Part shown: in pieces, positions 5,272 to 56,390 of the stretch
Layout: each line of letters starts with the position of its first letter
Position numbering within the stretch: position 1 is the first letter of the stretch
NCBI GenBank assembly: GCA_035610835.1
Contig: CM069445.1
Location: 32,848,811 to 32,912,810 of the forward strand
Length of the DNA: 64,000 bases
Origin: Ophiura sarsii
Taxonomy: Eukaryota > Echinodermata > Ophiuroidea > Amphilepidida > Ophiuridae
Reading direction: 5' to 3'
Position numbers and translations under genes: made by a program
The notes under the pieces: generated by a model
The model's database searches: none
What the model was told of the DNA's origin: nothing
Seen by the model: only the letters and a program-made list of their open reading frames with translations

Positions 5272-6878
5272 GATTGTAGATATTTCTGTCTATTAATGTA
5301 TACGGTTCCTTTGGTTTTTTTCATGCATAATTCTAGTTCAGTTTCATCCACAGCAACATGCTGAATAAAGCCACATTATTATACAAATCAGGTGCTACAA
5401 AGGTTATGAATATTCTCGAGTGCCTGCTGCCATTGTTATTGATTAAAGTCATTCATTTTAGGTTATGATCAGTTCTGAAAGAAATAGAGAAAAAGGAAAG
5501 GATTAGAAGTTTATCAAAGTTCATGAAGTGAATAATATATCATTGAAAATAAAAGTAACATTTCTCCATGCTACGGCTGATACATCAAAATAAAACCAAA
5601 CTAGATTAGCCAAAAGGTATGACATAATAACTATTTTTTTCATTTTAGGCAGGCTGATGATTACAAAGCTTCCGCAAGGGGCAGATCCCCCTCCACATTA
5701 TCCCCCTCCCCTGATAACTTCTAGGTGTATCCTTGGTGCAATATGTACATGAGGTATTATAAGACTAGTGTAATGACTATATTATACATGTAGGTTAAAA
5801 AGCAATTTTTTATTCTCCTTTTTAAAATATTTAAAAAAATATTTAAAAATGTCATGCTAGGTGAACATGTGTGAACTCATTACTCCATGAATAAACCTTT
5901 TTTACAATTTCATTCGTTGAAATCCAATACCATTGGCATCATTGATTTCCTGACTTTTTAGGAATATACTCAAAATCAATATCTCTTTTAGGTTTCTTGG
6001 CGGTAAATAACTCTTATTTTACATTCTATCCTTGACAGGCACTGGCATTTCCTACCCATAGAATAAGACCAAGACTTAATGACCTTCACATACATGGACG
6101 GCATGTTTACTAAAATCTAGACATGTTCTTTTTCTACTCTTATTTGTGCTTGCAATACAGTAATAAACCTTTTTTAATATTAGTTTACTTCTGCTGATAA
6201 TTCCACTGCAACAGTCATAGAAAAACTGTACTAAAAATAGTAATTTCAGTACAAACTCTTAGTTATTAAGCTATGTGAACTTGGGTTTGTAGTGCATATC
6301 TGGATGAGCTCCCACAAAACTGGAAATAAGACATAGTGCAACCAAGATACTACACTTGACTTATGACTGACATTTATGGCAGAAATGTCAGATCTAAACT
6401 TAATGCCAAAAAGCTTACTAATGTTACACTATGTATGCAATAGACAGCTTGTCTAGCGAATGAAAAATTTGCCTTTTGTGACACCCCTGTTTTTTCTGTT
6501 GGTCACGCTTTTCGGGGGTAAATGGAGAGCATTCTAATTTAATTAACCCTTTATTGAGAATCGCCAAATGCGGTTGTTTGGACCATACAAGGTAAAGTCA
6601 ACTGGTTATGTGACACCAGCTAATCACATGCTCTCTATTCTTTCGCATTTTCCCCCAGTTGCACAGTGCACATCACTTTGTTGGCTGGGATCATCAGGAA
6701 CAGTCAGTTAAATTCCCTCCTGCCCACCCTCTGTGCTTTTTTTCTGGGGATGGGTAAGGTAGCCAGGTGTTCCAGTTCACCTGGTGCGGTTTGGGTTAGG
6801 GAGAAATGGGAGGTAACCCTCATGCGCTATGTTGGTGGTCCTGTTTGGACCTTTGTTCTCTCGTACCCCTTGCCTACT
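5272..6878. other. Upstream region of the paralogue, no gene seen
   Basis: AT-rich single-copy-looking DNA. It should hold the 5' UTR and promoter of the paralogue, but no motif decides their position. Confidence 0.4.
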
Positions 6879-19708: not shown

Positions 19709-19961
19709 TTACACGCTGTTAATTGTTTCCATCTCCAAAACATCACTAGGGCCGTCCATTGGATGTAAATATGAATCGCGAATGATAGGCTCATGTTGGG
19801 TCAATTTGTGATATGCTGGATTGTCAATCCCTTGGGGCGAAGATTGTGCAGTCCCTGCGTGCATCTGCAGGTTCAAGATAAAGCTAAGTCTTTGTGCCAG
19901 TTCCCGGAAAGTACAACGACCTTTGGGGTTGCGGCTCCAACAAAGCTTCATAACATCATAC
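19709..19961 (-). CDS. Receptor exon 27: end of kinase and C-terminal tail
   Basis: 253 bases including stop TAA at 19709-19711. It encodes [20 protein letters not shown], then [12 protein letters not shown], then a 48-residue tail. The tail holds NPAY (NPxY form, a PTB-domain binding motif) and DSYLHPM. The paired docking tyrosines of vertebrate MET are not seen in the same spacing. Confidence 0.92.
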
Positions 19962-22900
19962 CTAAGATAGAAAAAATGATTTCTTCTGTGAATTGATTAA
20001 TCAAATATAAGAGGTTGGAAAATGACTGTTTTGCTAATATCTTTTTCATTAAATAAAATTGTAATGTTTCACCGTATTGAGCTCATAATTTGGTTCTGGC
20101 AGCTATATTTATTTTGATAATTTTCTTTATGTCAAGTTAATTACACACTATTTGGCAATCAATGAAATATATTGACAAACTGACATATAGCCTCTCCTGA
20201 CAGGGTACATGGAGAAAAGAAAACAAACAAATATGCAAATAAAATCTTTGCCTAACTGAGCAAAACTACAGCATGCTTAATTTCTCAATCCCCTTGGTGT
20301 AATACGTTATGTGATGTAGTATGAAAACGTAATCATAATTTTTGTACAAGACCATAGTCTTTAAATAAAAACTTTTACATACAAGAAACTTACACATCTT
20401 GACAGCAGTCCCCTGGACATGAAAGGCGGTCTCCCTGCATGATATGATAATACATATCTTTGTTGGCTATCTGTCGGTATGGTTTAGCTCCATTGGTATA
20501 GATCTCCCAAAGAAGTACACCATAAGACCACTGGTTTGTGAAAATCAACAAAACAAATATTTGTAAATATTACAAATAAGGGGGTAAGTAACAATTTACA
20601 AAAGACATGAAACTTTAATGAAAAGGTAATAACTTGTTTTTTAATTAGAAATATAAATAAATCATTTAAACAAAACCATCATATTTCACACAACAGCAAC
20701 GTAGAGCCAACCAATTCACCAGACTAATACACAGCCGTTTTCTTATGATCAGCATCATGATTACTGTCGGTACTTGTACAAGTATTGTATGCTTAGTATC
20801 TGTATGGAGAACTTACAGTACCTGTGTGGTAAAACCAAAGTAGAGCGCCGCACAGTAGCAAAGTTACTGGTACTGTGCAGCTACTTTGGTGGTACTTTAA
20901 AAGTACCCATGCAGCGGTACCAGTAAAGGTACTGGCAGCAGAGTAACCATGATGTCAAGCATAAGAACATAGATTGGATGACGTATTAATGTGAATACAA
21001 CATCAAGACAACGTACTGAAATACATATACTTAACTGGCTTGGACAGGAGTAGGGTGGGGTAGAACATTTTTATCATCTCAGTATTGTACATTATCCATC
21101 TTACCTGTAAAGCTACACTCAGTCATTTGGCATAAGAATTGTATAAAGATTTTGAGTTTTGTGCTTTTTATAATGACTTTCTATGCAATAACTCATATAC
21201 AGACGCCAATAATTCAAATACGCTTCTATAGCATTTTCAGCTGGTAGACCGTTCAGTATCTGACCAAATTATTTTAATACAATTTATGTGAGCCAGCAGA
21301 CATTAGTTAAGATGATCTATAATCTTTGTCAAATGTAGGTATTTTACCCTGTTTACAAATTTTTGGAATAAAAATAAAAGATCACTGTGACATTGGCAAT
21401 TCCTTAGTGTATTCTACAGTATTTGAAATTATTAAAGAAATAATATCTTTAATTGAAATCACTGAATGTACCTTTAATTTAAGATCAAGATATGTACTGA
21501 AAATTTTGAAAATGTTTACAAACCTTGCAAATTCCATAAAAACATTCTTAGCACATGCTTATAGGTAAAAACCAGAGATGCCATGCCGCTCAAAATACTG
21601 GAATGGTTAGGGAAAAAACTGGGGAAAATGCATTCACTTAAAAAAAAATCCGTAACACAAACTGACAATAAATAAGACCAAGTGAATTTTGACTGATAAA
21701 TTTCCCAAAAAATTGCATATATGGGTATAAACCATGGCCAGGATTCTTACCACGTCAGTCTTTTCATTATAGACACGTCGCCCTAGACTTTCAGGTGCCA
21801 TCCATTTCACGGGTATTTTGGCTTTCTTGTCCTGGCTCACATAATCGTCGGAATCTTCCAAATCACGAGAACGACCAAAGTCACCAATTTTCACAACCAA
21901 GTTTTCATCAACCCTGGTGTTGAAAAAAAATAAAAATTATAGAAGTCTAAACAGAATGACATTTCTTTCTTATCTAAAAGAATATGTCTAGAACCTTTAC
22001 AATCAGCACATAGGGCTTTGCATAGCACTGAGTCAGCGCTTGTGAAAGTTAAGGATGACATAATGCAGAACTTATCTCAACGGAAAGGTGTTTTCCTTGT
22101 CCTTCTTGACCTGAGCGCAGCATTTGATACTGTGAATCAATCTATCTTGCTCAACCAACTTTCCCATGACGTTGGGATCAAAGGAGTTGCACTCAAGTGG
22201 ATAGAGTCATACCTTACTGGCAGAACGACTAGCGTTTGAATCAATGGAGTCTCCTCTGATGTAAACAAAAATCTAAGAGCTTGTACGATGATGGTGTTAT
22301 GAAGCCATGATTTCTTGCATGTCTATGGGAACTGAGTTAGGGACCGGATTTACAATGTTAGCAAAAATGCAATGAATTGTGGTGCTGTCATTGGAGTGCA
22401 AGTGTCTTTTGATCTAATATAGCTATCATATGCATTCATAGACTCAAATACCTATGTTTTATGTGCGGGAAATATTTAAAAAAATCAATTGGATATGAAT
22501 ATTTTGGAGCTGTGAAACAAGTTTAGCAATAAATGTTCTTACATGCAGTTTCTAGCCGCTAGATCACGATGTACAAACTTCTTATCAGAGAGATAGGTCA
22601 TACCGTTAGCAGCATCAATTGCAAACTTCAGTTTCTGTTCACTTGTAATCTCCTGAATAAATACAATCATATTTGATGTGTTTAGGCAATCATCATGGTT
22701 AATAACAATATGCAAATATTGTTCCTGATTACAGATGTTCAAATGTTTTGCAATTGTCAAAGTTCTTAATATGCAGTGAGCATGTAATTTCACAGACAAC
22801 GACAGCTAGTTATGACAAAAAAGCGTGTACATGACAAAACAAAATGCATGCATTTTATGTTTAATCAAACAAATTTAAAAAAAATGTAAACAAAAAAAGA

Positions 22901-25900
22901 TGCATTTTACACAATGTTTAAAATATCACAACAGGCACCGCTCTATTTTGAGCGTTTACACATGTATACGTTGAAAAACAACAAATAATGAATTATCACT
23001 CATTTATTAAGCCTAATAACAGATATAAACATTAAAAATTCATAAAAGAGGGGTATTTTTTCAAATAAAGGCTCAGGTCTCTTTCATTGGCATACAGTCC
23101 AACCATACCTCAAGAAGAGAGGCTAGCCCGGAGGCCATATTAAATTTAAATTCATCCTTTATTATTTTTATTTTTTAGACTCACCAATGTCGTTTTCTTC
23201 AGAAATGATTTTAAGTCACCATTTGTCATCAATGGAATCACCACCAGTGGGCTTCCTTCTGGGTCAAAGGTCATTCCAATCATACCTAATACATTATCAT
23301 GGTCGAAATCTTTCATAATGAGACCTTCTTCAAGGAATTCAATGATGCTGGATGCGTCTTTTTCTCCTACCAAATACAATAACATGCACAGTAAAAAGAT
23401 TAAATGTTGACTCAAGTCAGTATGCAGAAATTTAGGTCCACCCAAGCTGCTCTGCCCCACCCCACTCCCACACACACAAAAAAACCTAATTCTAACTCCA
23501 TAGGCGTTAAAACTAGGGAGTATAGTATTATTCACATATATTTTAAGGATTCATACATATTTGAAAGTAATTTCATGCAGTTTGGGCACTGGACATTATT
23601 TGAATGCAATAACATATAAGTCATTACTGCTTGAATGGCTAAATGGAGACTAGCACGAGGGCTCTGCTGACTATATTAGCTAGCCCATCTATTGCCAAAC
23701 AAGTTTGATAACATATTCAACAAATACCTTGTATCGATTTGACTGCAACTTGGCGTCTTGAAATACCACCATGAGTTGTAAGACCGGCTTCATACACTTT
23801 TCCAAACGCCCCTTGATAATGATAAATTTGAGGATAAAAATATAACTTGATAAATTGCTAGTATACTAGGGAACTATTATACCTGCAATTTAATTTTAAG
23901 GATAATTGTAATGAATAAAGAGTGTATTATTAAGTGTATGCTGTGCGATGTAATCATTCAGCTCAAACTGAGGGATTTTATTGAAAACAGAATTGTATTA
24001 TCTATAAAATCGAATAAAGGTAGTGTCTGTTTTGATGATGAAATATTTACAAATTCTGCTATACTGCCAAAGTTAATAACACATGTGCACAGTCACTACA
24101 CCCATCCTATCTCATCAGCACATAACCAAATAGATTGATAGAAAAATGTGCTAATGGACTGTTAACGCTTTCCACACGGCTATTGGCTTTACAGTATACA
24201 AAAGAGATTTTTTAGAAACCTTTTCTTATTTTCAAGGTATATCTCAAGGATTACTGAACCAATACTATACTCTGTTTGGCCATCTCGAGACAGTGACGTA
24301 ACTGAACAGGCGCAGCTTTTACGCACGCGTGTGTATCTTCCGCCTTTCAACGCTCGTGTTTGTACGCCAGCGCCGCGATTATGCGCGCACATTATGTGAT
24401 GCAATTAGTAGAATACGCGGTTACGTCACTGTCTCGAGATGGCCAAACAGAGTATAGGCATATTTGTACTTATTTCAATGCATTTCTCATGATGATTCCA
24501 AATATGGTAATGAAATTCAATTACTTTGACATTTTTGAAATGTGAAATGTTGTAATGTCGTCTGTAGAAGCCTGCTGCGTGGAAAGTGTTATACTTAGAT
24601 ATTACCTTGTCCTAATATTCTTCCCATAGTTAATGCATTGTATCGTATGACATCTTCCGAGCTAATCTGCACATTATTTGGTAACATGATGCTTGCATGT
24701 TGCTTACAACTGCTTTCGGACTTCAGATTTCCAAGGTCATCTTCAACATCTGTAAAATGAATAAATAAATGTTCATGACATTCAGCATCGTTATATTTTG
24801 GCTTATGTTGCAAAAATTGCCTGAAATTAGATTAATTTGTTCTAAATGAGACATTTCATACTAATTTTAAGTAATTTTGACATTAAATTGAACATTTTTT
24901 ATTGCTTGAGAGACAAAATGTTCCTGAAATATTAATTCTTTAACTCTGGGATAAGCAGTTAATCTTCTGGTACCAAAGTGTCAAATAAAAAGACACATCT
25001 GAATACCTGCATCAGTGACTGGTGATACTGCATCACCAGTCAACCTTCAAGAAATGGAGGCACGTGTCAGAGCCGAAGTGAGATCCCTGCGCCGCAACGG
25101 TATGTGCTTCATATCACCATGCTGCAGTAATATTCATGTCTTAACTGTGTAAATCCCATAGGAAGGGCGAAAAACACGGACAGTTTACAAAACGTGTCGC
25201 AGTTTGCTTATTTTTCAGTCGATTACTTTCATGTTTTGGGAGGATAAACTAGATTAACAACGCTTTATACAAACAACAGAAATTCCATGGGTCAATGCTC
25301 GCAGCAAGGTCAAATGGTCGTTTCAAATTGTGCACAATGTTTTTTGATTCACCCTGTATACACTAGATAACAAATCAATTTCCATAAATATCCATGACTT
25401 ACTCTTTTGTAATAAAACAAGCCGTTCAAGGATCAAAGCATCCCTTTCTCTCAACAATTTCCTGTGTTGTACGACATAATGAGCTAGTGCAATAACCAGT
25501 AAAACCAGTAAAACCAGGACAAACGTCACAACTACAGCCAGGATAATTTGCTGTACGTTTGATTGTGAAGGGTATTGCAAACTACCGATATTAATTTCAA
25601 GATTCCCATGACGGACCTGAAAATACAAATTACACAAATGTATTCATCAATGACAATAACAATGACCACAACATTAAAAATACTAATAACCAATACTATA
25701 ACAACAGCAGTAGCAAAAAATACACAATAATAAGTCGTACAAAAGAAATTACGATAACAGTCATTGCTTTTATTTCTAGTATACAAATATTATCTGGCTA
25801 TGAGTGTGATGGTTGAAATATAATCATGAGGTGAGAGATAGACAGCTCCATTCCATGAGCTGTTACAGTTCTGGGCCAAGAGCACTTAGGCCAAACAAAA

Positions 25901-48998: not shown

Positions 48999-49041
<43 letters not shown>

Positions 49042-52000
49042 TAGGCACAGACACACATTACATGATGAAAAAATACCCTTCTGGTTTTACAAACTAGGGG
49101 GATAAAAAATAGGGACAGCGGTCCCAAATATGTCATCCGTTTATATGGGTAGATTAAAAAAAAGGTGGCTCTAAAACCACAGGCATCAGGCAACTAGAAA
49201 GAAAGAGGACATATACACTGCCGCGCAAAAGTATTTCTCCCCCTGGAAGCTTGCCAGTTATCACTGTGTTGTCGACAAAGTATTAAACCATCAGACCCAA
49301 TAACCATTTCATTGTGTTCATTGTACATTTTATACCAATAAATACCATGTTTCCTATTCAGATTCATGATTTAAAAGCATTGCAATTCATGATTTTATCG
49401 AGCAAGTCAAAATTCCAATGTAAAATCGCTGTAGTAAATCACCTCATGAATATCAATTAGCTCATTATCGGCAGTGTAACGCTATGAGAATTTTCAACTG
49501 AGATCAAAAGGTGATGGAAAACTCCATGTGCAGAAATGTATAAATGATAATTGGCATGCGCAGTTTATTGGAATACCTTTAGAAGGAACCATTCAAGCTA
49601 TATCAAGTTATTTTTCTGACGCCGATCTATGTTTTTGGCAGATATTCATCTTTTTAAAACCAAATCATATCGGGCTGTAATAGCGCAAATTCGGCAAGTT
49701 AAAAAAGCACCGGGGACCCATTGACTGTAAATAAGTACTGTTAGAGGTTGGACACAATAAGTATCCTATTCATCTGATTTGAATAGGATTGTGTAGCTCC
49801 CTATTGTTTGGGATTGAGAAGAGACGGTGGCATAGTAGAAAAAAGGATTTATTATGTCTTGGTATGTTGTTTATTGAGCGGTCCTTTGTGAAGATGAAAT
49901 AGAGGGAAACTCTACTGCTTTGAATCATTCTATTGATAACGTGGTTTGTTACGTCACTGGAGCAAATAGGTCAATGAACTACGTGCATGCACACTTTGTA
50001 ATTTTCTGGTTCTCCATGTTATTTCAGCCCGATTGTATTGAAAATAATTTTAGATGTGCCTTAAATAAAGATGAATATCTGCAAAAAACATAAACCGTCG
50101 TCACAAAAATAACTTTTTAAAGCTGGAATGGTTCCTTTTGAAGGTATTCCAATAAACTGCACATGCCAATTATCATTTATAAAAGTCTGCACATGGAGTT
50201 TTCCATCACCAGTTGATCTCAGTTGAAAATGCCCATAGCGTTACACTGCCGATAATGAGCTAATTGATATTCATGAGGTGATTTACTACGGCAATTTTAC
50301 ATTGGAATTTTGACTTGCCCTATAAAATCATGAATTGTAATGCTGTTAGATCATAAATCTGAATAGGAAACATGAATTTATTGGTATAAAATGTACAATG
50401 AACACATTGAAATGGTAATTGGGTCTGATGGTTTAATACTTTGTCGACAACACAGTGATAACTGGCAAGCTTCCAGGGGGAAAAATACTTTTGCGCGGCA
50501 GTGTATATAGTATAGCCTCCTTGTAAGTCATAATAAGGTAACATCATAATGTAAATAAATAAATATCCTGGAATTTGGTTGCAATTGTACTTCACCTGTT
50601 TAAATGTAATACATATGCAGCCAATTTTACATCTTGACCTCAGATGACTTTTGACCTTGGTATTTGACCTTTGAACTCATTAACATATGAAGGTTTCCAT
50701 GTTGCATCTATGACCCAAGTTTGGTATGCAATTGGTCATTGTATGAAAAGAAATGGACAAATGTAATCAATTTTACATATGCAGCCAATTTTACATCTTG
50801 ACCTCAGATGACCTTTGACCTTGGTATGTGACCTTTGACCTCATTAACATATGAAGGTTTCCATGTTGCATATATGACCCAAGTTTGATATAAAAGGCCA
50901 ATATCGCTCCAGCTGACATAATGTGCAGAATAATAGGTGTTTTCTATTGCACTAAATATTATGAAGCAAATCATATACAGAGTAAGATTATAGCAGTGAT
51001 ATAAAATAGGAACAATATAAAAGCAATGAAGTTGTTATACTTGTTAATGTGTCAGTCCATTTCATATGATCATAGGGGAGGGGAATTATATGTTTCCTTA
51101 CCTTGACTAACTCCCCTCTAGCTGTTCCTACAAATCCTACAGTGTGATCTCTATGTGTAGTTGTGATAATAGATGATGGTAATGTGTCAGTCCATGTTAT
51201 ATGAGGTTGATAGGGAGGGGCAATATATGTTTCCTTACCTTGACTAACTCCCCTCTAGCTGTTCCTACAAATCCTACAGTGTGATCTCTATGTGTAGTTG
51301 TGATAATAGATGATGGTAATGTGTCAGTCCATGTTATATGAGGTTGATAGGGAGGGGCAATATATGTTTCCTTACCTTGACTAACTCCCCTCTAGCTGTT
51401 CCTACAAATCCTACAGTGTGATCTCTATGTGTAGTTGTGATAATAGATGATGGTAATGTGTCAGTCCATGTTATATGAGGTTGATAGGGAGGGGCAATAT
51501 ATGTTTCCTTACCTTGACTAACTCCCCTCTAGCTGTTCCTACAAATCCTACAGTGTGATCTCTATGTGTAGTTGTGATAATAGATGATGGTAATGTGTCA
51601 GTCCATGTTATATGAGGTTGATAGGGAGGGGCAATATATGTTTCCTTACCTTGACTAACTCCCCTCTAGCTGTTCCTACAAATCCTACAGTGTGATCTCT
51701 ATGTGTAGTTGTGATAATAGATGATGGTAATGTGTCAGTCCATGTTATATGAGGTTGATAGGGAGGGGCAATATATGTTTCCTTACCTTGACTAACTCCC
51801 CTCTAGCTGTTCCTACAAATCCTACAGTGTGATCTCTATGTGTAGTTGTGATAATAGATGATGGTAATGTGTCAGTCCATGTTATATGAGGTTGATAGGG
51901 AGGGGCAATATATGTTTCCTTACCTTGACTAACTCCCCTCTAGCTGTTCCTACAAATCCTACAGTGTGATCTCTATGTGTAGTTGTGATAATAGATGATG

Positions 52001-55000
52001 GTAATGTGTCAGTCCATGTTATATGAGGTTGATAGGGAGGGGCAATATATGTTTCCTTACCTTGACTAACTCCCCTCTAGCTGTTCCTACAAATCCTACA
52101 GTGTGATCTCTATGTGTAGTTGTGATAATAGATGATGGTAATGTGTCAGTCCATGTTATATGAGGTTGATAGGAAGGGGCAATATATGTTTCCTTACCTT
52201 GACTAACTCCCCTCTAGCTGTTCCTACAAATCCTACAGTGTGATCTCTATGTGTAGTTGTGATAATAGATGATGGTAATGTGTCAGTCCATGTTATATGA
52301 GGTTGATAGGGAGGGGCAATATATGTTTCCTTACCTTGACTAACTCCCCTCTAGCTGTTCCTACAAATCCTACAGTGTGATCTCTATGTGTAGTTGTGAT
52401 AATAGATGATGGTAATGTGTCAGTCCATGTTATATGAGGTTGATAGGGAGGGGCAATATATGTTTCCTTACCTTGACTAACTCCCCTCTAGCTGTTCCTA
52501 CAAATCCTACAGTGTGATCTCTATGTGTAGTTGTGATAATAGATGATGGTAATGTGTCAGTCCATGTTATATGAGGTTGATAGGGAGGGGCAATATATGT
52601 TTCCTTACCTTGACTAACTCCCCTCTAGCTGTTCCTACAAATCCTACAGTGTGATCTCTATGTGTAGTTGTGATAATAGATGATGGTAATGTGTCAGTCC
52701 ATGTTATATGAGGTTGATAGGGAGGGGCAATATATGTTTCCTTACCTTGACTAACTCCCCTCTAGCTGTTCCTACAAATCCTACAGTGTGATCTCTATGT
52801 GTAGTTGTGATAATAGATTATGGTAATGTGTCAGTCCATGTTATATGAGGTTGATAGGGAGGGGCAATATATGTTTCCTTACCTTGACTAACTCCCCTCT
52901 AGCTGTTCCTACAAATCCTACAGTGTGATCTCTATGTGTAGTTGTGATAATAGATGATGGTAATGTGTCAGTCCATGTTATATGAGGTTGATAGGGAGGG
53001 GCAATATATGTTTCCTTACCTTGACTAACTCCCCCCTAGCTGTTCCTACAAATCCTACAGTGTGATCTCTATGTGTAGTTGTGATAATAGATGATGGTAA
53101 TGTGTCAGTCCATGTTATATGAGGTTGATAGGGAGGGGCAATATATGTTTCCTTACCTTGACTAACTCCCCTCTAGCTGTTCCTACAAATCCTACAGTGT
53201 GATCTCTATGTGTAGTTGTGATAATAGATGATGGTAATGTGTCAGTCCATGTTATATGAGGTTGATAGGGAGGGGCAATATATGTTTCCTTACCTTGACT
53301 AACTCCCCTCTAGCTGTTCCTACAAATCCTACAGTGTGATCTCTATGTGTAGTTGTGATAATAGATGATGGTAATGTGTCAGTCCATTCAATGGCAGCAG
53401 TAGAAACCAGGGGTTCTATGCCACCTGCTTTTCTCCAATTTTGTGCACTACATTGTTGTGCTATTGCGCTATCACGAGTAGCCAACTGAAACATAAATAG
53501 AGAGAACAAGTCAATTCAATATCACAAGATGATAATAAATTATAAGCATCTAAAATACAAAATACTGTAAGTCACGACTTGCAAATTCCCCTGGCAGGAG
53601 ATTTCCCTCATGGGAGTAGTTAAGAATACTCCTTTAACATGCCTGGAAACAGCACCCACCCATCGGCCAATAGCGGATAACCTTTGCGTTGGCAGGTAAA
53701 ATAGTTCAAACTCACAGTATAAAATGAGTGAATTATAATGGCTGGTGGAATTTTTGTTGGGCAGGTATTTTTGTGACTTACCTGCCCAACTGGCTGGTTA
53801 AATCAAATCTGAAGTTCCAGCCCTGCCCTTTAATCAGCGAAGGCAAGGGCATCTTGTTAGGTGCTCATATTCGAAAATTTAATTTGCAGAATTAACCAAG
53901 ATATTTAAACTGTAACACCTATATAACATACGTAGGCAAACATGTGAATGCATAATATTTAGTATGTAAGTAATGATTGTGAATAAATCTCTTGCATGGA
54001 GAAAAAAAGTTTGGTTGAGATTGAAGTCTACCTTTTCATAATAGGGTCAAAGGTCATGTAAGGGTCATTAGATGTCAATCTGGGTACAACCCCATGATGA
54101 GTGATCTCAAGCCCACCTTACCCCAAGATTATTATCACCAATTTGGTTGAGATTGAACTTGGACTTTTCATACGAGAGTACTGAACAGGCCAAACCTAAC
54201 CAAAAGGGAATACACATACCCACCTCACCCCACCCCTACATGACATGATGATTATATCCCTGTGGGATTTTAGTCAGGGGGATGATCAATCAAAATATGA
54301 AGGTTACATGAATTCATTACTGTAAACTGAATGTAATCAAATTGAATCACATTGTAACCAAGATAAATCCAGCCAATCTATAAACATGTATGCCTTTAAA
54401 AAATACAAATTGCTCAAAGTAGTTTTTGTTCATTATCATACAACCATGTTTTTAGATCAATGCTTTATATAAGATAAACACCACTTATAGCCCCTTGTCA
54501 TTGTATCTTGGTGTAAAATTCATACACACATGCACATTCTTAGCAACTCAAATATAATGGGGGAGGGGGAGGGTTAACATAGTAAACAATGCAAAACACA
54601 CTTCCGCTTTCATTTTGTTTGTTTTCCGCTTCAATTTTATTTTATTTTATTTTAATTTTAGTTCTAACTTTTTTGTTCAGGTGTTTCAGAGTTTAAGATG
54701 TTTATAATAGGTTAAGCATTTTAAACAAGTATTGTGGTGACCAACCCCCAGAACCATGAAATAAAAAAATTAAAAGAGGCCTCCTCCTCTTTAAGGTTTG
54801 CAAAGTATATTACTAACAAGGGCGGTTTTGCACTAAAAAAGTTTTTTAAAAGGCCTCCTCCTTTTTTTTGAAAAAGTCTGGACGCTAAACATGTTTTTTT
54901 TTAATGTGCCTTATATCATAACCAGGGTTTATAATAATAACTAATTTGATCAGCCTACATTCTATTTGGGGTATGCAATCTACCAGCAATGCCAAGTATG

Positions 55001-56390
55001 TGCAGGTATTAAATTAGATTAATGGGTAAGATTTGAAAAAATATAAACCAAAATCTTTTGATTTTCATTAACCATTATGATGTCAAGTATTTGGTAGGAT
55101 ACATTTTATGATATGCTCTGATATCCTATATTTCTAAAATTGTATGATAAGAGAATGTTGTTACTAGGCTCAGTTTAGGAGGTATAATATATTGTCGAAG
55201 ATGACATCGGGACCCTGTCAACGCCTAACTGTACTTGATATCTAATATACTTATACATCTTGCAACATCACCAATAGTTTACTCACAGTTGTACTGCAGT
55301 CCCCTCCTGATGCATATACAATATCAAATAAATCACCCTTAGTAAGACATCCATATATGGCATCGATGAATGCTTCTTCAATATCTTGTAGTTTGTACAC
55401 ACACAAAGCTGACTGGGTGCTTGGTACATCTGATGACAAAGCTTGTCCTTCATTCTTGGCAAATACTCCGTACAGGACGTCATCACCAGCATTAATACCA
55501 AGAGATGCAGCTAAGGTGGTTCCAGCTGGGCCAACATGTGCAGATTGGATCAAGTTGTAATTGGTGCCTGAAGTGCTACACTCAAGAAGTATTTCTGCGT
55601 ATGAAGTAAAATCATCTTTGTTGTGACAAACACGATTGATTTTTGAAACATACCGATTGATACCTGATGAATCAACATCTTGTCTTTGTGATGTCACAAA
55701 GTAGGTAAAGTCCTTCCAAATGAATACACTCACATAATTGATGATCAATTGAATGTTCTCAAATTTAACTCTGCTTAATAAGATGTAAGCTTCTCTTTCT
55801 GTATTAAATAAAAAATCATCAGATACATTCAGTGATCTTCTGCTCACTGGATAAACAAAAGCATTATATCTTTCCTCCTCATATGTTGCACCTACATAGA
55901 GTGTGTCCATACTACCATTTGCAGGTAAAGGTCCAGGGGCAATGATAGCTTCTGTTGTTAACTTTCCTGAGACTACTACAGGATTATTATCTTCATGCAA
56001 AACAACATCAATGTTGATTAAATCACGAGTTTGGCAGGTTCCACGACTCTCTAAAGCATCAACAAAAGTATCCTCACTACCGCATGTGATGAGTCTATTA
56101 TGTGTATAGTCTATGAGTAGAATCTTGTTATAATTGGGGCATTTAAGGAAATCTCCTTCACATTCCACCTCTGTTTTCACCACCTGTTCTCTAGTGAAAT
56201 CTTCTCTCAACTGATACAATGCATCACTAGCTCCAATGTACACAGTTCCTGTCACGTTATGCGTCACAAAATGGGTGAATTCTGATGTCCCAACAGGGTT
56301 AACGTAGGATGCTGCCTGGTACGCAGTCAAATCCAACCCGTATGTGTAGTAACACATGAATGAGAGGAGGAGAAGCGAGGGCGCTCCCAT
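19709..56390 (-). CDS. met-like: Plexin-ectodomain receptor tyrosine kinase, MET/RON-like (27 coding exons)
   Basis: Spliced model, about 1651 residues; all 27 exons join in phase with canonical GT donors and AG acceptors. Domains by residue: signal peptide 1-18; Sema about 25-475; PSI1 about 481-520; plexin-type IPT about 521-641; PSI2 about 642-672; plexin-type IPT about 683-790; PSI3 about 791-835; three further IPT-like units about 856-1223 with basic motif RRRKR at 1107-1111; membrane helix about 1247-1269; kinase about 1335-1600; short tail to 1651. Kinase landmarks: glycine loop GQGAFGKV, Lys1367 (VAVK), Glu1384, HRDLAARN with Asp1461, DFG at 1479, MAPE. The wording GLIMKDF and SPLVVIP resembles the MET family. 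It is expected to sit in the plasma membrane, bind a ligand through Sema and signal by tyrosine phosphorylation. The ligand is unknown; HGF-like or semaphorin-like are both possible. Untranslated exons and promoter were not found. Confidence 0.9.
20394..20530 (-). CDS. Receptor exon 26: kinase C-lobe
   Basis: 137 bases, phase 0 to 2. It encodes [18 protein letters not shown] then [27 protein letters not shown] is the conserved F helix. Found by frame and splice continuity. Confidence 0.9.
21751..21913 (-). CDS. Receptor exon 25: DFG and activation loop
   Basis: 163 bases, phase 2 to 0. It encodes [14 protein letters not shown], then the loop [15 protein letters not shown], then [16 protein letters not shown]. 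There is a single tyrosine where MET has an adjacent pair; the position of the first is Asp. Donor GTAAGA. Confidence 0.93.
22010..22240 (+). mobile_element. CR1/L2-like RT fragment in intron 24
   Basis: It reads [34 protein letters not shown] and then [10 protein letters not shown], the classic CR1/L2 RT core. Only about 75 residues remain and it lies opposite to the host gene. Confidence 0.85.
22543..22652 (-). CDS. Receptor exon 24: catalytic loop
   Basis: 110 bases, phase 0 to 2. It encodes [19 protein letters not shown], then [20 protein letters not shown] is the tyrosine-kinase form of the catalytic loop. Acceptor TTCAG, donor GTAAGA. Confidence 0.93.
23185..23366 (-). CDS. Receptor exon 23: kinase N-lobe, helix C and hinge
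   Basis: 182 bases, phase 1 to 0. It encodes [19 protein letters not shown] with the helix C Glu, then [19 protein letters not shown], the hinge. G-x-I-M-K-D-F-x-H-x-N-V and E-G-S-P-L-V-V are especially close to MET/RON. Donor GTGAGT. Confidence 0.92.
23728..23811 (-). CDS. Receptor exon 22: ATP-binding loop and catalytic lysine
   Basis: 84 bases, phase 1 to 1. It encodes [16 protein letters not shown] then [14 protein letters not shown]-x-V is the glycine loop and the Lys of VAVK is the ATP-binding lysine. The exon is too short to show as a long open frame. Confidence 0.9.
24180..24600. repeat. Interspersed repeat that hosts the 24.3-kb MITE
   Basis: The flanks GGATTACTGAACCAATA and GTACTTATTTCAATGCATTT through GTCGTCTGTAGAAGCCTG match 57490-57660. 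Confidence 0.7.
24267..24455. mobile_element. MITE with 36-bp terminal inverted repeats, TA target
   Basis: Ends TACTCTGTTTGGCCATCTCG... and exact reverse complement, about 189 bases, in intron 21. The related repeat at 57505-57520 carries the same flanks without the insert (ACCAATAATAGGCAT), an empty site showing duplication of TA. Confidence 0.88.
24606..24749 (-). CDS. Receptor exon 21: juxtamembrane segment and start of kinase
   Basis: 144 bases, phase 1 to 1. It encodes an acidic stretch [17 protein letters not shown], then [19 protein letters not shown] and LGQG. The final glycine opens the ATP loop and is split across the intron. Confidence 0.87.
24880..25362. mobile_element. Fragment of the 13.8-kb mariner-like family, right end
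   Basis: Shares AATCTTCTGGTACC..., GGAGGCACGTGTCAGAGCCG, GGAGGATAAACTAGATTAAC and the end TTTTTGATTCACCCTGTA. The left end is missing. Confidence 0.75.
25403..25616 (-). CDS. Receptor exon 20: stalk, membrane helix and juxtamembrane start
   Basis: 214 bases, phase 0 to 1. After [19 protein letters not shown] comes a hydrophobic run of about 23 residues (core [20 protein letters not shown]) followed by basic [14 protein letters not shown]. This is the single membrane pass, with positive residues on the cytoplasmic side. Confidence 0.9.
25617..26464. other. Intron 19: low-complexity DNA
   Basis: A-rich and T-rich runs at about 26195-26240 and 26287-26302 and GCGC words; the two runs with their CAAGCTT/AAGCTTGCG flanks form a loose inverted pair (25915-26300). 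No gene. Confidence 0.5.
26465..26635 (-). CDS. Receptor exon 19: last IPT strand before the membrane
   Basis: 57 codons, phase 0 at both ends. It encodes [18 protein letters not shown], then [17 protein letters not shown] and sequon NKT. G-S-N-L and the V-T-V-x-I-G strand are IPT-like. Acceptor TTTGCAG, donor GTAAGT. Confidence 0.85.
26641..27347. other. Intron 18: nothing recognised
   Basis: AT-rich DNA without a repeat partner that I could see in this window. Confidence 0.4.
27348..27602 (-). CDS. Receptor exon 18: fifth IPT unit with RRRKR motif
   Basis: 85 codons, phase 0 at both ends. It encodes [16 protein letters not shown], then the strongly basic [10 protein letters not shown], then [14 protein letters not shown] and an acidic stretch. 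The R-x-K/R-R form fits a furin-type proprotein convertase site. MET is cut by furin inside Sema and some plexins nearer the membrane; here the motif lies in a membrane-near IPT unit, at residues 1107-1111. Confidence 0.87.
27603..28449. other. Intron 17: mariner-like end and decayed exon copy
   Basis: CATACAGGGTGTCCAAAAGT at 27903 resembles a mariner-type end; no partner end was found. A 10-base ACAAGTAATT repeat lies at about 28305-28337, then the exon 17 partial copy. Confidence 0.5.
28365..28432 (-). pseudogene. Decayed partial copy of exon 17
   Basis: Just downstream of exon 17 the minus strand again reads [13 protein letters not shown] after an AG, matching the opening of exon 17 and its acceptor, but the second half of the exon is absent and no matching donor is seen. 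It could also be the remnant of a lost extra IPT exon. Confidence 0.6.
28450..28543 (-). CDS. Receptor exon 17: fifth IPT unit, first part
   Basis: 94 bases, phase 2 to 0. It encodes [19 protein letters not shown] then [14 protein letters not shown]-x-x-L-x-V-x-G-T-G-F is a textbook IPT strand. Donor GTAACA. Confidence 0.87.
28975..29151 (-). CDS. Receptor exon 16: fourth IPT unit, second half
   Basis: 177 bases, phase 2 to 2. It encodes [18 protein letters not shown] then [12 protein letters not shown] and [18 protein letters not shown], ending one IPT unit and opening the next. Acceptor TTCTAG, donor GTTTGT. The intron before it holds LINE B. Confidence 0.87.
29270..31850 (-). mobile_element. 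LINE B, endonuclease and RT, long open frame
   Basis: One uninterrupted frame runs from about 31850 to 29365 (843 codons with a non-element start). It holds the later part of an APE endonuclease ([29 protein letters not shown]) and a full RT ([40 protein letters not shown]). The endonuclease N-terminus is missing, so it is 5' truncated. The open frame and higher GC than the surroundings indicate a young insertion. It lies in intron 15, same strand as the receptor. Confidence 0.88.
31851..32000. repeat. G/C-run junction and unknown repeat at the 5' edge of LINE B
   Basis: A G-run of about 32 bases with a GGGGGGCAAGTTGCCCCCC palindrome marks the edge. Beyond it the plus strand has ATTTGTGACCGTGCGAAA repeated about three times (32030-32085). 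Confidence 0.55.
32895..32990 (-). pseudogene. Second, older decayed copy of exon 15
   Basis: This resembles the 33976-34070 copy and lacks the same central segment. The former donor is visible but reads AATAAGTATAG in place of AATAGGTAAGT. It is more diverged than the first copy. Confidence 0.65.
33011..33786. mobile_element. Inverted-repeat bounded segment in intron 15
   Basis: TTATATAACGCATGAAAATA (33018) and its reverse complement (to 33780) bracket about 770 bases that include the 39-bp duplication and a CTAGCCTAG/CTAGGCTAG-rich patch near 33460-33530. Possibly a non-autonomous DNA element; no target duplication confirmed. Confidence 0.55.
33114..33191. repeat. Two tandem 39-bp units
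   Basis: GCGGTCAATAGTACATTTTG... starts at 33114 and 33153 with identical text for 39 bases each. Confidence 0.9.
33776..33968. mobile_element. Near-perfect 190-bp palindrome
   Basis: AACAAATATTTAATGATC... then GGGAAATGGTGCAAACTATT and GGAGGCCGTGGGCC pair with their reverse complements around a centre near 33873. A cruciform-forming foldback element with no coding capacity. Confidence 0.85.
33976..34070 (-). pseudogene. Decayed partial copy of exon 15
   Basis: Minus-strand text from SFE... through [14 protein letters not shown] is recognisable at DNA level, but about 22 bases of the exon centre (the GGTACCATGGTAACC region) are missing and the donor end is altered. It lies immediately downstream of the real exon. 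Confidence 0.75.
34085..34218 (-). CDS. Receptor exon 15: fourth IPT unit, first half
   Basis: 134 bases, phase 0 to 2. It encodes [20 protein letters not shown], then [18 protein letters not shown]. Pro-x-x-G-x-x-x-G-G-T and I-T-G are IPT signatures. Donor GTAAGT. Two decayed partial copies of this exon lie downstream in the intron, at about 33976-34070 and 32895-32990. Confidence 0.87.
34688..34790. mobile_element. Small inverted-repeat element
   Basis: GAGAATAATGACTGCGTAAC at 34688 and its near-exact reverse complement ending at 34790 (arms about 31 bases, one mismatch). Confidence 0.7.
35435..35552 (-). CDS. Receptor exon 14: third IPT unit, second half
   Basis: 118 bases, phase 2 to 0. 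It encodes [19 protein letters not shown] then GEVLFTYR. The C-x-T-L/P and final F-x-Y strand complete an IPT fold. Donor GTATGT. Confidence 0.85.
35896..36050 (-). CDS. Receptor exon 13: third IPT unit, first half
   Basis: 155 bases, phase 0 to 2. It encodes [18 protein letters not shown] then TDLGKQF and [10 protein letters not shown]-x-x-G-P-x-x-G and I-x-I-x-G-T-x-L are IPT/TIG signatures. Donor GTGATC is a weaker form. Confidence 0.85.
36353..36546 (-). CDS. Receptor exon 12: PSI domain 3
   Basis: 194 bases, phase 1 to 0. It encodes [19 protein letters not shown] and the PSI core LNCGWC, then [15 protein letters not shown] and a serine run. This third PSI makes the set PSI-IPT-PSI-IPT-PSI that defines plexin ectodomains. 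Confidence 0.9.
36925..37018 (-). CDS. Receptor exon 11: end of second plexin-type IPT unit
   Basis: 94 bases, phase 0 to 1. It encodes [18 protein letters not shown] then [10 protein letters not shown]. The strand pattern parallels exon 7 before PSI2, here before PSI3. Acceptor CTTACAG, donor GTAAGT. Confidence 0.85.
37335..40803. repeat. Inverted 36-bp repeats flanking LINE C
   Basis: GTTAGACTTGGTCTAAC... at 37337 matches the reverse complement of 40767-40802 (TTTAGACCAGGTCTAAAG...). LINE C appears to have landed inside a small inverted-repeat element. Confidence 0.6.
37500..40590 (-). mobile_element. LINE C, near full length, three frameshifts
   Basis: The frame from Met at 40576 carries an APE endonuclease ([44 protein letters not shown]). 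RT follows in other frames: [83 protein letters not shown], ending at 37520. Frame breaks lie near 39100, 38968 (an extra G in a G run) and 38745. The 3' tail is a short AAGTC repeat at 37505-37520. Inactive, moderately old, in intron 10. Confidence 0.87.
41094..41189 (-). CDS. Receptor exon 10: second plexin-type IPT unit, middle
   Basis: 32 codons, phase 0 at both ends. It encodes [15 protein letters not shown] and VFTCNARM, with the same Tyr-x-Cys ... Cys pattern as exon 6. Acceptor CACAG, donor GTATGA. The intron that follows holds LINE C. Confidence 0.85.
41778..42002 (-). pseudogene. Partial duplicate of exon 9 broken by a SINE-like insertion
   Basis: The sequence matches exon 9 from its CCTGA-CAAAGTCC region to the donor GTAAGT, but no AG acceptor precedes it; the copy begins about 18 bases after the donor of the intact exon. 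About 90 bases ending in a TTA repeat interrupt it, and the frame reaches a stop in the insert. The last codons read PAEYR where the intact exon has PAEDI, so either one may be nearer the ancestral form. It is a dead partial exon in the present arrangement. Confidence 0.85.
41830..41925 (+). mobile_element. SINE-like insertion in the exon 9 duplicate
   Basis: The text AAAGCGCTTTGAGACGG and AAAGCGCTATATAAAAACC ending in (TTA)n is a LINE/SINE 3' tail type common in marine animals. TTACTG on both sides is a target duplication; the intact exon copy has the site once (TATTACTGACACC). Confidence 0.8.
42020..42154 (-). CDS. Receptor exon 9: second plexin-type IPT unit, first half
   Basis: 45 codons, phase 0 at both ends (acceptor TTTAACAG, donor GTAAGT). 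It encodes [16 protein letters not shown] and then [14 protein letters not shown], the IPT opening between PSI2 and PSI3. A partial, broken copy of this exon follows at 41778-42002. Confidence 0.87.
42512..42632 (-). CDS. Receptor exon 8: PSI domain 2
   Basis: 121 bases, phase 2 to 0. It encodes [14 protein letters not shown], a clear PSI core, then [17 protein letters not shown]. Acceptor TTAG, donor GTGAGT. Confidence 0.9.
43200..43506. mobile_element. hAT-type MITE with 8-bp target duplication
   Basis: Terminal repeats CAGGGTTGTAGCTA on both ends, flanked by perfect 8-bp GGTCTTAA (43192-43199 and 43507-43514). Internal GC-rich GTGCCAGGCGG repeats. 307 bases, no coding. It lies in intron 7. 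Confidence 0.92.
43699..43795 (-). CDS. Receptor exon 7: end of first plexin-type IPT unit
   Basis: 97 bases, phase 1 to 2. It encodes [18 protein letters not shown] then [11 protein letters not shown]. The DHV opening and the F-Y-F-Y-E-C ending are typical of the plexin IPT strand that runs straight into PSI2. Found by frame and splice continuity; it is too short to show as a long open frame. Confidence 0.87.
43903..44900. other. Intron 6: short direct repeats, C run
   Basis: ACTTGAGTTCATGAGTTGT occurs about three times at 43980-44040; a C run lies at 44898-44912. No gene seen. Confidence 0.5.
44945..45104 (-). CDS. Receptor exon 6: first plexin-type IPT unit
   Basis: 160 bases, phase 0 to 1. 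It encodes [19 protein letters not shown] and then [16 protein letters not shown]. The pattern Tyr-x-Cys ... Cys-x-x-Pro is that of the plexin-type IPT between PSI1 and PSI2. Vertebrate MET has no such unit at this place. Confidence 0.85.
45354..45486 (-). CDS. Receptor exon 5: PSI1 end and start of first IPT unit
   Basis: 133 bases, phase 2 to 0. It completes Arg with exon 4 and continues [16 protein letters not shown], then [18 protein letters not shown], the usual opening of a plexin IPT unit. Donor GTAAGC. Confidence 0.87.
45788..46015 (+). mobile_element. tRNA-derived SINE in intron 4
   Basis: The head has an A box TGGCTGAGCGTTAGC and a B box GGTTCAGATCC at tRNA spacing; the body is unrelated DNA and the tail is a TATC/TATCTA micro-repeat at 45995-46015. 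It lies opposite to the receptor. Confidence 0.75.
46026..46141 (-). CDS. Receptor exon 4: PSI domain 1
   Basis: 116 bases, phase 0 to 2 (donor GTATGT). It encodes [18 protein letters not shown] and then the PSI core DPYCGWC. The Cys spacing and the CGWC motif are diagnostic of plexin-semaphorin-integrin domains. The reading frame is too short to stand alone as a long open frame. Confidence 0.9.
46142..47258. other. Intron 3: nothing recognised
   Basis: No repeat partner or exon seen. The plus-strand frames here are short and lack family text. Confidence 0.4.
47259..47381 (-). CDS. Receptor exon 3: end of Sema domain
   Basis: 41 codons, phase 0 at both ends (acceptor TTTTTTAG, donor GTAAGG). 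It encodes [13 protein letters not shown] through [10 protein letters not shown], matching the last Sema strand that leads to PSI in the MET/plexin families. It joins in frame to exon 4. Confidence 0.85.
47520..47930. mobile_element. Possible mariner-like end
   Basis: TACAGGGTGAGACAAAAAG at 47524 matches the ends of the 6.9- and 13.8-kb elements. No second end was found. Confidence 0.5.
47930..48880. repeat. TGACCT-rich satellite-like repeat
   Basis: A unit of very roughly 240 bases, diverged, with GTTCCCCCGGTGTTCATGTT, CTCCAAGTTTGA-GTCAATC and runs of TGACCTTTGACCTCAGATGA. About 29 TGACCT words occur in 0.9 kb. A shorter relative is at 50630-50880. Confidence 0.85.
48986..49041. repeat. Long C homopolymer
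   Basis: About 55 nearly uninterrupted C residues with two G interruptions near the left side. Its true length is uncertain in any assembly. Confidence 0.9.
49216..50503. mobile_element. Tc1-like foldback element, 1.29 kb
   Basis: Ends CACTGCCGCGCAAAAGTATT and exact reverse complement, with TA on both sides. Arms of about 470 bases pair imperfectly around a loop of about 340 bases. No transposase frame. In intron 2. Confidence 0.87.
50630..50890. repeat. Two tandem TGACCT-rich units
   Basis: ACATATGCAGCCAATTTTAC followed by CTTGACCTCAGATGAC occurs at about 50610 and 50777, each ending CATATGAAGGTTTCCATGTT. Confidence 0.8.
51045..53387. repeat. 137-bp tandem array of partial exon 2 plus splice donor, 17 copies
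   Basis: AATGTGTCAGTCC recurs at exactly 137-base steps from 51181 to 53373, with a diverged partial edge at 51045. Seventeen copies of the donor context (minus-strand GTCAAG then GTAAGG) start at 53288 and descend to 51096. Only a few single-base differences occur (for example near 52163, 52819 and 53033). The copy nearest 53294 is the real exon end; the others lack an acceptor. Confidence 0.95.
53294..53485 (-). CDS. Receptor exon 2: Sema domain, continued
   Basis: 64 codons, phase 0 at both ends. The acceptor is a pyrimidine-rich tract ending TTTCAG; the donor is GTAAGG. It encodes [13 protein letters not shown] through GTARGELVK, a late Sema blade. The 3' part of this exon, its donor and about 37 bases of intron are the unit of the 137-bp tandem array that follows it. 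Reading through the donor adds about 13 residues and then a stop. Confidence 0.9.
53486..55286. other. Intron 1: no gene; left part shared with the paralogue
   Basis: 55110-55286 matches 2205-2537 plus 4098-4152. The rest is AT-rich with no partner found. Confidence 0.5.
55287..56390 (-). CDS. Receptor exon 1: signal peptide and most of Sema domain
   Basis: 368 codons, phase 0 at the 3' end (donor GTGAGT). It starts at the Met at 56390, followed by a hydrophobic leader ([18 protein letters not shown]) of secreted type. The body carries Sema-type text such as [17 protein letters not shown], paired cysteines and sequons NVT, NGS and NVS. One large first coding exon covering most of Sema is also seen in MET and plexin genes. 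The paralogue exon at 4153-5271 aligns along nearly its whole length. Confidence 0.93.

What the first reader, a model, noticed from the sequence alone, without database searches (positions are those of the whole stretch)
19709..56390. A receptor with a plexin-type ectodomain and a MET-type tyrosine kinase
Seen: three PSI cores ([21 protein letters not shown]) alternate with plexin-type IPT units ([10 protein letters not shown]...[19 protein letters not shown]), then three more IPT-like units, one helix and a kinase with HRDLAARN and DFG. Known: plexins have Sema-PSI-IPT-PSI-IPT-PSI-IPTs with a GAP inside; MET and RON have Sema-PSI-4 IPT with a kinase inside. Inference: this gene keeps or has regained the full plexin ectodomain on a MET-type kinase, and may show the step by which MET arose from a plexin-like ancestor, or a receptor answering to semaphorin-like ligands by tyrosine phosphorylation.
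Basis: partly seen in the sequence, partly recalled or inferred. Interest (0 to 1): 0.93.

Follow-up and report, generated by a model that had tools for sequence, protein, structure and literature searches.

The report
Plexin-headed MET-type kinase receptor (Met-LP)
This stretch, probably from a brittle star, carries a predicted intact gene that joins a complete plexin-type outer part to a MET-type tyrosine kinase, a receptor layout already published as Met-LP, and comparison with relatives suggests that in echinoderms such outer parts have likely been swapped repeatedly between kinase tails and ordinary plexin tails.

Summary
On the minus strand, 27 predicted exons with GT-AG introns and matching phases run from 56390 to 19709 and encode 1659 residues without an internal stop: Sema, PSI1, IPT1, PSI2, IPT2, PSI3, IPT3-6, one helix, a complete tyrosine kinase. 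The ectodomain aligns end to end with solved plexin-A ectodomains. The kinase matches MET best among the single-kinase chains shown.

The layout is not new: Junqueira Alves et al. 2019 (PMC6374515) named it Met-LP in an annelid, a mollusc and a starfish. The nearest proteins are from the brittle star Amphiura filiformis.

The 'step towards MET' reading is not supported. Seven MET ectodomains form one clade and this one lies outside it, among plexins (quick tree).

What appears new is a conflict between the halves. Echinoderm Met-LP kinases form one clade. Their ectodomains are interleaved with GAP-tailed plexins; one clade is rejected (p-AU 1.8e-8). This gene's ectodomain is closest to an Amphiura GAP plexin, its kinase to Amphiura Met-LPs. 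Recurrent tail exchange is the likely cause; mis-joined public gene models are the main rival.

The parts
55287..56390 (-). exon 1: signal-peptide-like start and most of Sema (aa 1-368)
   Evidence: Pfam Sema; tblastn
53294..53485 (-). exon 2: Sema, [15 protein letters not shown] (aa 369-432)
51045..53387 (.). 137-bp minisatellite, 17.1 copies, made of the last part of exon 2 plus its splice donor; 17 exact donor copies incl. the real one
   Evidence: TRF; donor count; sequence
47259..47381 (-). exon 3: end of Sema
46026..46141 (-). exon 4: PSI1 (DPYCGWC)
45354..45486 (-). exon 5: PSI1 end / IPT1 start
44945..45104 (-). exon 6: IPT1
43699..43795 (-). exon 7: IPT1 end ([16 protein letters not shown])
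42512..42632 (-). exon 8: PSI2 (SSWACDWC)
42020..42154 (-). exon 9: IPT2 start
41094..41189 (-). exon 10: IPT2
36925..37018 (-). exon 11: IPT2 ([13 protein letters not shown])
36353..36546 (-). exon 12: PSI3 (LNCGWC)
35896..36050 (-). exon 13: IPT3
35435..35552 (-). exon 14: IPT3 end
34085..34218 (-). exon 15: IPT4
28975..29175 (-). exon 16: IPT4/IPT5
   Evidence: its acceptor lacks a good pyrimidine tract but is phase-consistent
28450..28543 (-). exon 17: IPT5
   Evidence: P0002 only
27348..27602 (-). exon 18: IPT5, with RRRKR furin-type motif (aa 1115-1119, 27527-27513)
26465..26635 (-). exon 19: IPT6
25403..25616 (-). exon 20: HGNLE stretch, hydrophobic helix (aa 1255-1277), juxtamembrane coil; similarity to GAP plexins ends here
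   Evidence: no tblastn hit
24606..24749 (-). exon 21: juxtamembrane, kinase start
   Evidence: no tblastn hit
23728..23811 (-). exon 22: glycine loop, VAVK
   Evidence: no tblastn hit
23185..23366 (-). exon 23: kinase, [11 protein letters not shown]
22543..22652 (-). exon 24: kinase, HRDLAARN
21751..21913 (-). exon 25: kinase, DFGR (21882-21871) and activation loop DDYV (21849-21838)
20394..20530 (-). exon 26: kinase
19709..19961 (-). exon 27: kinase end, tail with NPAY and SYLHPM, stop
   Evidence: (P0003, E 4.7e-4)
4066..5289 (-). open frame with the first Sema exon of a second, downstream paralogue (81% identical over 363 aa); the rest of that gene was not found in the window
   Evidence: Pfam Sema; dN 0.12, dS 0.30 over 366 codons

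Best explanation
The window holds a predicted intact 27-exon gene for a Met-LP receptor, that is, a complete plexin-type ectodomain, one membrane helix and a complete MET-family tyrosine kinase, probably from a brittle star, and it would signal by tyrosine phosphorylation when an outside ligand, possibly a semaphorin, pairs two receptors. Shown from sequence: the exon chain, the domains, the catalytic motifs, a furin-type RRRKR site in IPT5, and no detectable plexin GAP exons in the window. Inferred: cleavage at RRRKR into two associated chains, ligand-driven pairing, trans-phosphorylation at the activation loop, and docking of adaptors at the tail tyrosines (NPAY, SYLHPM). Evolution, inferred from trees: the kinase half descends from one echinoderm Met-LP kinase lineage inside the MET family, whereas the ectodomain half descends from a plexin ectodomain of its own lineage. 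The likely process is repeated recombination or gene conversion between plexin and Met-LP paralogues, with the join near the transmembrane exon.
For: Gene model: 27 exons, consistent phases, no stop; 24 of 27 exons recovered with Amphiura proteins. Domains. Ectodomain colinear with plexin-A4 over residues 37-1205, E 1.2e-133; the best MET chain matches in two stretches, E 9.8e-45. Kinase, 60 best chains shown: MET about 250 bits, MER 237, RON 234; an EGFR chain listed first carries two kinase copies at 157 bits each. Published layout. Kinase tree: 15 of 15 echinoderm Met-LP rows on one side of a branch, 100/99*, among 40 rows. Ectodomain tree: 25 tail-labelled echinoderm rows (16 kinase, 9 GAP) need 5 changes of tail, all 5 forced by starred branches; one kinase-tailed clade rejected, p-AU 1.81e-8; starfish alone, 11 kinase and 7 GAP, p-AU 1.17e-93. 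For this gene: it joins GAP-tailed P0002 and truncated P0004 (100/99*, 92/96); holding it with Amphiura kinase-tailed P0003 and P0018 costs 304.9 lnL, p-AU 7.8e-59. Identity to P0002 against P0018/P0003 is 75 against 52/54 in IPT4 and 61 against 45/42 in IPT5b, then turns to 12 against 27/31 in the juxtamembrane coil. No GAP-tail hit in the window at E 0.1 with 5 query tails.
Against: No transcript or protein evidence. The species is inferred. GAP or kinase tails of the relatives are public gene predictions: P0009 contains odd inserts and P0002 repeats the exon-3 stretch. Support for exchange rests on those pairings. In PSI2, PSI3, IPT3 and the stretch before the helix this gene is about equally close to P0002 and to the kinase-tailed rows, and Sema1-3 could not be compared. 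The switch at the membrane is not seen in every pair: Patiria P0005 is no closer to P0016 than to P0026 in the juxtamembrane, P0018 is closer to P0003 already in IPT6, and P0024 already in IPT5 leaves its GAP partner. In the 50-row kinase tree the echinoderm Met-LP clade has 92/93, not starred, and the 98/98* branch that holds all MET and Met-LP rows also holds Csf1r, sponge and tardigrade rows. The place of the clade relative to METs is unresolved. The window's kinase has Arg after DFG, seen in 0 of 113 other kinases (L 107, M 5, Q 1), and Asp for the first activation-loop Tyr, which may mean altered activity. Ligand and activity are untested. The groups tested by AU follow the tails, but were tested after first trees had been seen.
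Confidence: 0.8

Rival explanations
1. Met-LP gene as above, but without any tail exchange: the GAP-tailed relatives of this ectodomain in public annotation are mis-joined models of neighbouring tandem genes.
For: Amphiura P0002, P0004, P0009, P0018, P0023, P0130 and MET-type P0187 share one longest-contig length of 86,336,683, so neighbours could be joined wrongly; P0009 contains insert-like junk and P0002 a repeated stretch.
Against: The pattern recurs in three starfish annotations (P0027, P0028 and P0026 nest stepwise around seven Patiria kinase rows, 100/99* to 100/100*), and Patiria P0026 has another longest contig (23,093,800) than the 18 Patiria kinase-tailed rows listed (46,651,055), so a local mis-join is unlikely to make it. 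P0018 and P0009 are 63-99% identical by segment outside the helix and juxtamembrane, so they are probably different loci.
Confidence: 0.2
2. Living relic of the plexin-to-MET step: the common ancestor of MET had this layout and this gene kept it.
For: Kinase of MET family; the Met-LP kinase clade as sister to the other METs is not excluded (p-AU 0.068 for the other METs as one clade).
Against: Ectodomain groups with echinoderm GAP plexins, not at the base of METs; the 7 METs are one clade at 100* (quick tree). The hemichordate Met-LP kinase P0204 is nested among five hemichordate MET-like rows, 100/100*, as sister of P0203, 99/94*, which fits a later separate origin. The 2019 paper also infers separate origins of Met-LP.
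Confidence: 0.07
3. A decaying or signalling-altered copy: the open frame survives but the kinase no longer works normally.
For: DFG followed by Arg, and one Tyr instead of the Tyr-Tyr pair of the activation loop found in all 40 other Met-LP and MET rows printed; several partial exon duplicates and a minisatellite in the gene.
Against: 27 intact exons and all catalytic motifs; dN/dS about 0.41 between the two first Sema exons of the window. Arg at this position is recalled as activating in EGFR (L858R), so it need not mean loss.
Confidence: 0.1
4. One ectodomain spliced to either a kinase or a GAP tail from a single locus.
For: Same ectodomain type occurs with both tails.
Against: No GAP-tail hit in the window, including the 14 kb up to the next paralogue (E 0.1); kinase- and GAP-tailed relatives differ in ectodomain sequence.
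Confidence: 0.03

Closest known systems
Met-LP receptor tyrosine kinases (Junqueira Alves et al. 2019, PMC6374515; Capitella, Aplysia, four in Acanthaster planci)
   Same: Complete plexin ectodomain plus transmembrane helix plus tyrosine kinase; in the starfish, ectodomain of the plexin-B kind, with a Plexin-B and a Met-LP gene side by side.
   Different: Here probably an ophiuroid; kinase carries DFG-Arg and a single activation-loop Tyr. The paper built its tree on Sema plus PSI; the conflict between kinase tree and ectodomain tree was shown here.
MET / RON
   Same: Kinase family.
   Different: MET has Sema, one PSI and four IPT only (stated in PMC6374515); the 7 MET ectodomains used form a separate clade; its furin site lies in Sema (recalled), here in IPT5.
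Echinoderm GAP-tailed plexins (Amphiura P0002, P0009; starfish plexin-B-like)
   Same: Ectodomain 54-78% identical to P0002 segment by segment.
   Different: Plexin RBD/GAP tail replaced by a kinase; no GAP-tail hit in the window.
Hemichordate P0204 (Glandiceps talaboti, 'plexin-A2-like', plexin ectodomain plus kinase)
   Same: Same layout.
   Different: Its kinase nests with hemichordate MET-like rows, so likely a separate origin.

Membership tests
Met-LP RTK | Complete plexin ectodomain: Sema, PSI, IPT, PSI, IPT, PSI, several IPT | tested here: met
   Pfam; colinear with plexin-A4 chain over residues 37-1205
Met-LP RTK | Single transmembrane helix followed by a complete tyrosine kinase | tested here: met
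   Hydrophobic helix read at aa 1255-1277, no predictor run; kinase profile 1-258 of 258
Met-LP RTK | Kinase grouping with other echinoderm Met-LPs | tested here: met
   15 of 15 echinoderm Met-LP rows together 100/99*, 92/93 with distant rows added; includes Acanthaster P0134. Lophotrochozoan Met-LPs were not among the rows listed
Met-LP RTK | One transcript joining both halves | not testable with these tools
   no RNA data; splice phases fit
MET/RON receptor | Truncated ectodomain: Sema, one PSI, four IPT | tested here: not met
   three PSI cores and plexin-specific TIG_plexin and TIG_2 present; outside the MET ectodomain clade
MET/RON receptor | Kinase inside the MET family | tested here: met
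   best single-kinase PDB match MET; groups with MET and Met-LP rows, though the 98/98* branch also holds long-branched Csf1r, sponge and tardigrade rows
Plexin | Cytoplasmic RBD/GAP domain | tested here: not met
   no plexin-cytoplasmic Pfam match up to E 1; no GAP-tail tblastn hit in the window
Plexin | Plexin ectodomain | tested here: met

The most novel reading that the evidence does not exclude
In echinoderms the plexin ectodomain is an interchangeable head: recombination or gene conversion has several times moved heads between a GAP tail (collapse signalling) and one old MET-type kinase tail (growth-type signalling), so that the same family of outside cues can be read in opposite ways, with the join near the transmembrane exon; the window gene is one such chimera, whose head matches an Amphiura GAP plexin and whose tail matches Amphiura Met-LPs. 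A naturally DFG-Arg, single-Tyr activation loop may make it a primed kinase.
Probability: 0.6. Interest if true: 0.75.

Novelty: new member of a known kind. Interest (0 to 1): 0.5.

Why it matters
It confirms that the plexin-ectodomain kinase exists outside the species first described, gives a complete gene structure for one, and makes a testable case that receptor outputs can be rewired by swapping tails while keeping the ligand-reading head. It also weakens this gene as a candidate for a MET ancestor. If semaphorins bind it, one guidance cue could drive GAP signalling through one receptor and tyrosine phosphorylation through its neighbour.

Tried and rejected
Exon 21 was first taken to start at 24820, which breaks the phase with exon 20; the acceptor at 24749 restores it. 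Exon 13's donor was first searched with a wrong string and then corrected.

Candidate exons 9b/9c (within 42010-41736) and a second copy of exon 15 (from 34052) were rejected as partial duplicates: the second exon-9 copy is split by an insert and the exon-15 copies are truncated.

Tardigrade P0039 looked like a Met-LP in Ecdysozoa. It lacks the kinase N-lobe, and its C-lobe matches KIT, PDGFR and FGFR chains rather than MET among the 60 shown, so I treat it as a likely mis-joined model; it was kept and dropped.

Kinase as sister of echinoderm METs: held together it is weakly disfavoured (p-AU 0.0375). Other METs as one clade: p-AU 0.068. So the origin of the Met-LP kinase within or beside METs is left open.

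Breakpoint inside exon 20 as an argument against mis-joined models: the 16 residues before the helix are too alike in the ophiuroid rows to decide.

Rows dropped: P0045 (35 of 36 rows used); ten of 50 rows (six distant kinases, the tardigrade, the sponge, P0015 and P0090). Of 18 Patiria kinase-tailed rows listed 8 were used in trees. The listings are capped at 120 rows. A third protein search, meant to reach lophotrochozoan Met-LPs, listed none.

Literature: (93 papers, 20 listed, titles and abstract starts only), gave no second paper on this layout; subscription journals are mostly not in that library.

Full report
What is there. A gene on the minus strand runs from 56390 (ATG) to 19709 (end of stop). 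I read three-frame translations, listed splice signals and assembled 27 exons with GT-AG introns and consistent phases, giving 1659 residues and no internal stop. Six proteins of the brittle star Amphiura filiformis recover 24 of the 27 exons by tblastn, with breaks at or near the chosen boundaries; exons 20, 21 and 22 gave no hit at E 1e-3 and rest on phase, splice signals, the kinase profile and alignment. Pfam finds Sema (2.1e-12), PSI, PSI_PlexinA-B, TIG_plexin, TIG_2, five TIG stretches and a complete tyrosine kinase (7.6e-88). The ectodomain aligns from residue 37 to 1205 with the solved plexin-A4 ectodomain (1.2e-133); the best MET chain matches in two stretches. The kinase matches MET best among the single-kinase chains of the 60 shown (about 250 bits; MER 237, RON 234); the EGFR chain listed first holds two kinase copies of 157 bits each. 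Glycine loop, [18 protein letters not shown] and a hydrophobic helix are present, and RRRKR stands at 1115-1119 in IPT5.

Where it comes from. The closest proteins are from Amphiura filiformis and then starfish; the highest identity listed is 61% (best 120 of 204). So the source is probably an ophiuroid without annotation in that database; this is inference. The genome search did not complete.

Already known. I searched for the layout and found Junqueira Alves et al. 2019 (PMC6374515; I saw the abstract, the outline, passages and the first part of section 11). They named Met-LP, 'Met-like with plexin ectodomain': one each in Capitella and Aplysia, four in Acanthaster. They place Acanthaster Met-LPs with Acanthaster Plexin-Bs (PP 1.0, Sema plus PSI), infer two separate origins, note a Plexin-B and a Met-LP gene side by side, and say that ligands are unknown, possibly semaphorins. 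Five other searches gave no second paper on it (by titles and abstract starts only).

Kinase half. In a 50-row tree all MET and Met-LP rows lie beyond a 98/98* branch that also holds long-branched Csf1r, sponge and tardigrade rows, and echinoderm Met-LPs group at 92/93. Without ten distant or short rows (40 rows) the 15 echinoderm Met-LP rows form one side of a branch, 100/99*, with the window beside Amphiura P0003 and P0018 (88/91). Their place relative to METs is open: with echinoderm METs and Glandiceps P0044 p-AU 0.0375; other METs as one clade p-AU 0.068. The Glandiceps Met-LP P0204 lies among five hemichordate MET-like rows, 100/100*, which points to a further origin in hemichordates.

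Ectodomain half. In a 29-row tree the window joins Amphiura P0002, which has a plexin GAP tail, and P0004, which is truncated, at 100/99*. Amphiura kinase-tailed P0018 joins GAP-tailed P0009 at 100/99*. Seven Patiria kinase rows nest inside GAP-tailed rows of Asterias amurensis, Acanthaster and Patiria. The 25 labelled echinoderm rows need 5 changes of tail, all forced by starred branches; kinase-tailed rows as one clade cost 1646 lnL, p-AU 1.81e-8. A 35-row quick tree with other animals needs 8. Starfish only: 11 kinase, 7 GAP, 3 changes, p-AU 1.17e-93. For the window with P0003 and P0018: p-AU 7.8e-59; P0003 with P0018: p-AU 0.00245. In one search the window's own branch to P0002 and P0004 has 92/96, not starred.

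Where the switch lies. By segment, the window is closer to P0002 than to P0018 or P0003 in Sema4, PSI1, IPT1, IPT2, IPT4, IPT5 and IPT6 (where both could be compared), about equal in PSI2, PSI3, IPT3 and before the helix, and closer to the kinase-tailed rows in the juxtamembrane (12 against 27/31, 21 against 39/46). P0018 and P0009 are 99% identical in IPT5b and 8% in the juxtamembrane coil, while P0018 and P0003 are 69% there; in IPT6 P0018 is already closer to P0003 (76 against 63), where the P0009 model has inserts. Arub P0024 leaves its GAP partner in IPT5. Patiria P0005 is no closer to P0016 than to P0026 in the juxtamembrane (12 against 15, 19 against 26), so the switch is not visible there (all). 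If the kinase clade had one origin, vertical descent does not give these trees; exchange does. Mis-joined public models are the main alternative: P0009 has inserts and P0002 repeats an exon-3 stretch. Against it: Patiria P0026 lies on another contig than the 18 Patiria kinase rows listed, judged by the longest-contig lengths 23,093,800 and 46,651,055. In Amphiura, 7 of 8 rows, MET-type P0187 included, share the length 86,336,683, which would allow local recombination, and also local mis-joins.

No relic. With METs added, the 7 MET ectodomains form one clade (100*), and the window stays with echinoderm plexins and Saccoglossus P0218 (100*) (quick tree, long branches among METs). So the gene does not look like a plexin-to-MET intermediate.

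How it likely works. Shown: layout and motifs. Inferred: proteolytic maturation at RRRKR (a furin-type motif stands at the aligned place in P0002, P0009, P0018, P0130, P0023, P0016, P0025 and P0033, and is absent in most starfish rows), ligand-driven pairing, trans-phosphorylation, and docking at NPAY and SYLHPM. SYL.PM also occurs in the Patiria P0005 and P0014 tails. The window's activation loop is unusual: DFG is followed by Arg (0 of 113 fetched kinases that my motif search caught; L 107, M 5, Q 1), and DDY replaces the Tyr-Tyr pair found in all 40 other Met-LP and MET rows printed. Arg there recalls EGFR L858R (recalled, no call), so a primed kinase is possible, as is a damaged one.

Second copy. 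A Sema first exon at 5289-4066 is 81% identical to exon 1 over 363 residues, dN 0.12 and dS 0.30, so a paralogue follows downstream.

Verdict. Observation confirmed; layout known; evolutionary inference replaced by a likely head-and-tail exchange model that rests partly on public gene predictions.

Noticed in passing
window 51045-53387: A 137-bp minisatellite (17.1 copies, 99% matches) built from the last part of exon 2, its splice donor and the start of intron 2: 17 identical donors in a row. Use of a later donor would add 137 bases and an in-frame stop, so only the first gives the open frame.
   Followed up: partly
window 42157-41736 and 34420-32900: Partial tandem duplicates of exon 9 (second copy split by an insert) and of exon 15 (several truncated copies).
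   Followed up: partly
window 5289-4066: First Sema exon of a second paralogue, so the receptor genes lie in tandem.
   Followed up: partly
window 8166-9935, 29365-31929, 37520-38743, 39032-40648: Reverse-transcriptase and endonuclease ORFs, probably of non-LTR retrotransposons; the last three lie inside introns of the gene.
   Followed up: no
window about 14956-18340: About four near-identical copies of a roughly 900-bp unit, seen from repeated ORFs.
   Followed up: no
window 58503-59001: 50-bp minisatellite, 10 copies, 98% matches.
   Followed up: no
P0204 (Glandiceps talaboti): A hemichordate Met-LP whose kinase nests among hemichordate MET-like kinases; the 2019 paper reports Met-LP for Lophotrochozoa and Echinodermata.
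   Followed up: partly
P0005-P0008, P0010-P0017, P0019-P0022, P0135, P0136 (Patiria miniata): 18 kinase-tailed Met-LP protein clusters with one shared longest-contig length: a large starfish expansion; among seven of the eight rows used in trees, kinases are nearly identical and ectodomains more varied.
   Followed up: partly
P0048, P0051, P0060, P0172 and others: MET-like receptors annotated in ticks, a spider and a horseshoe crab, although the 2019 survey found no Met in Ecdysozoa.
   Followed up: no
P0039 (Paramacrobiotus): Annotated plexin-kinase in a tardigrade; kinase N-lobe missing and C-lobe KIT/PDGFR/FGFR-like, so probably a mis-joined model.
   Followed up: yes
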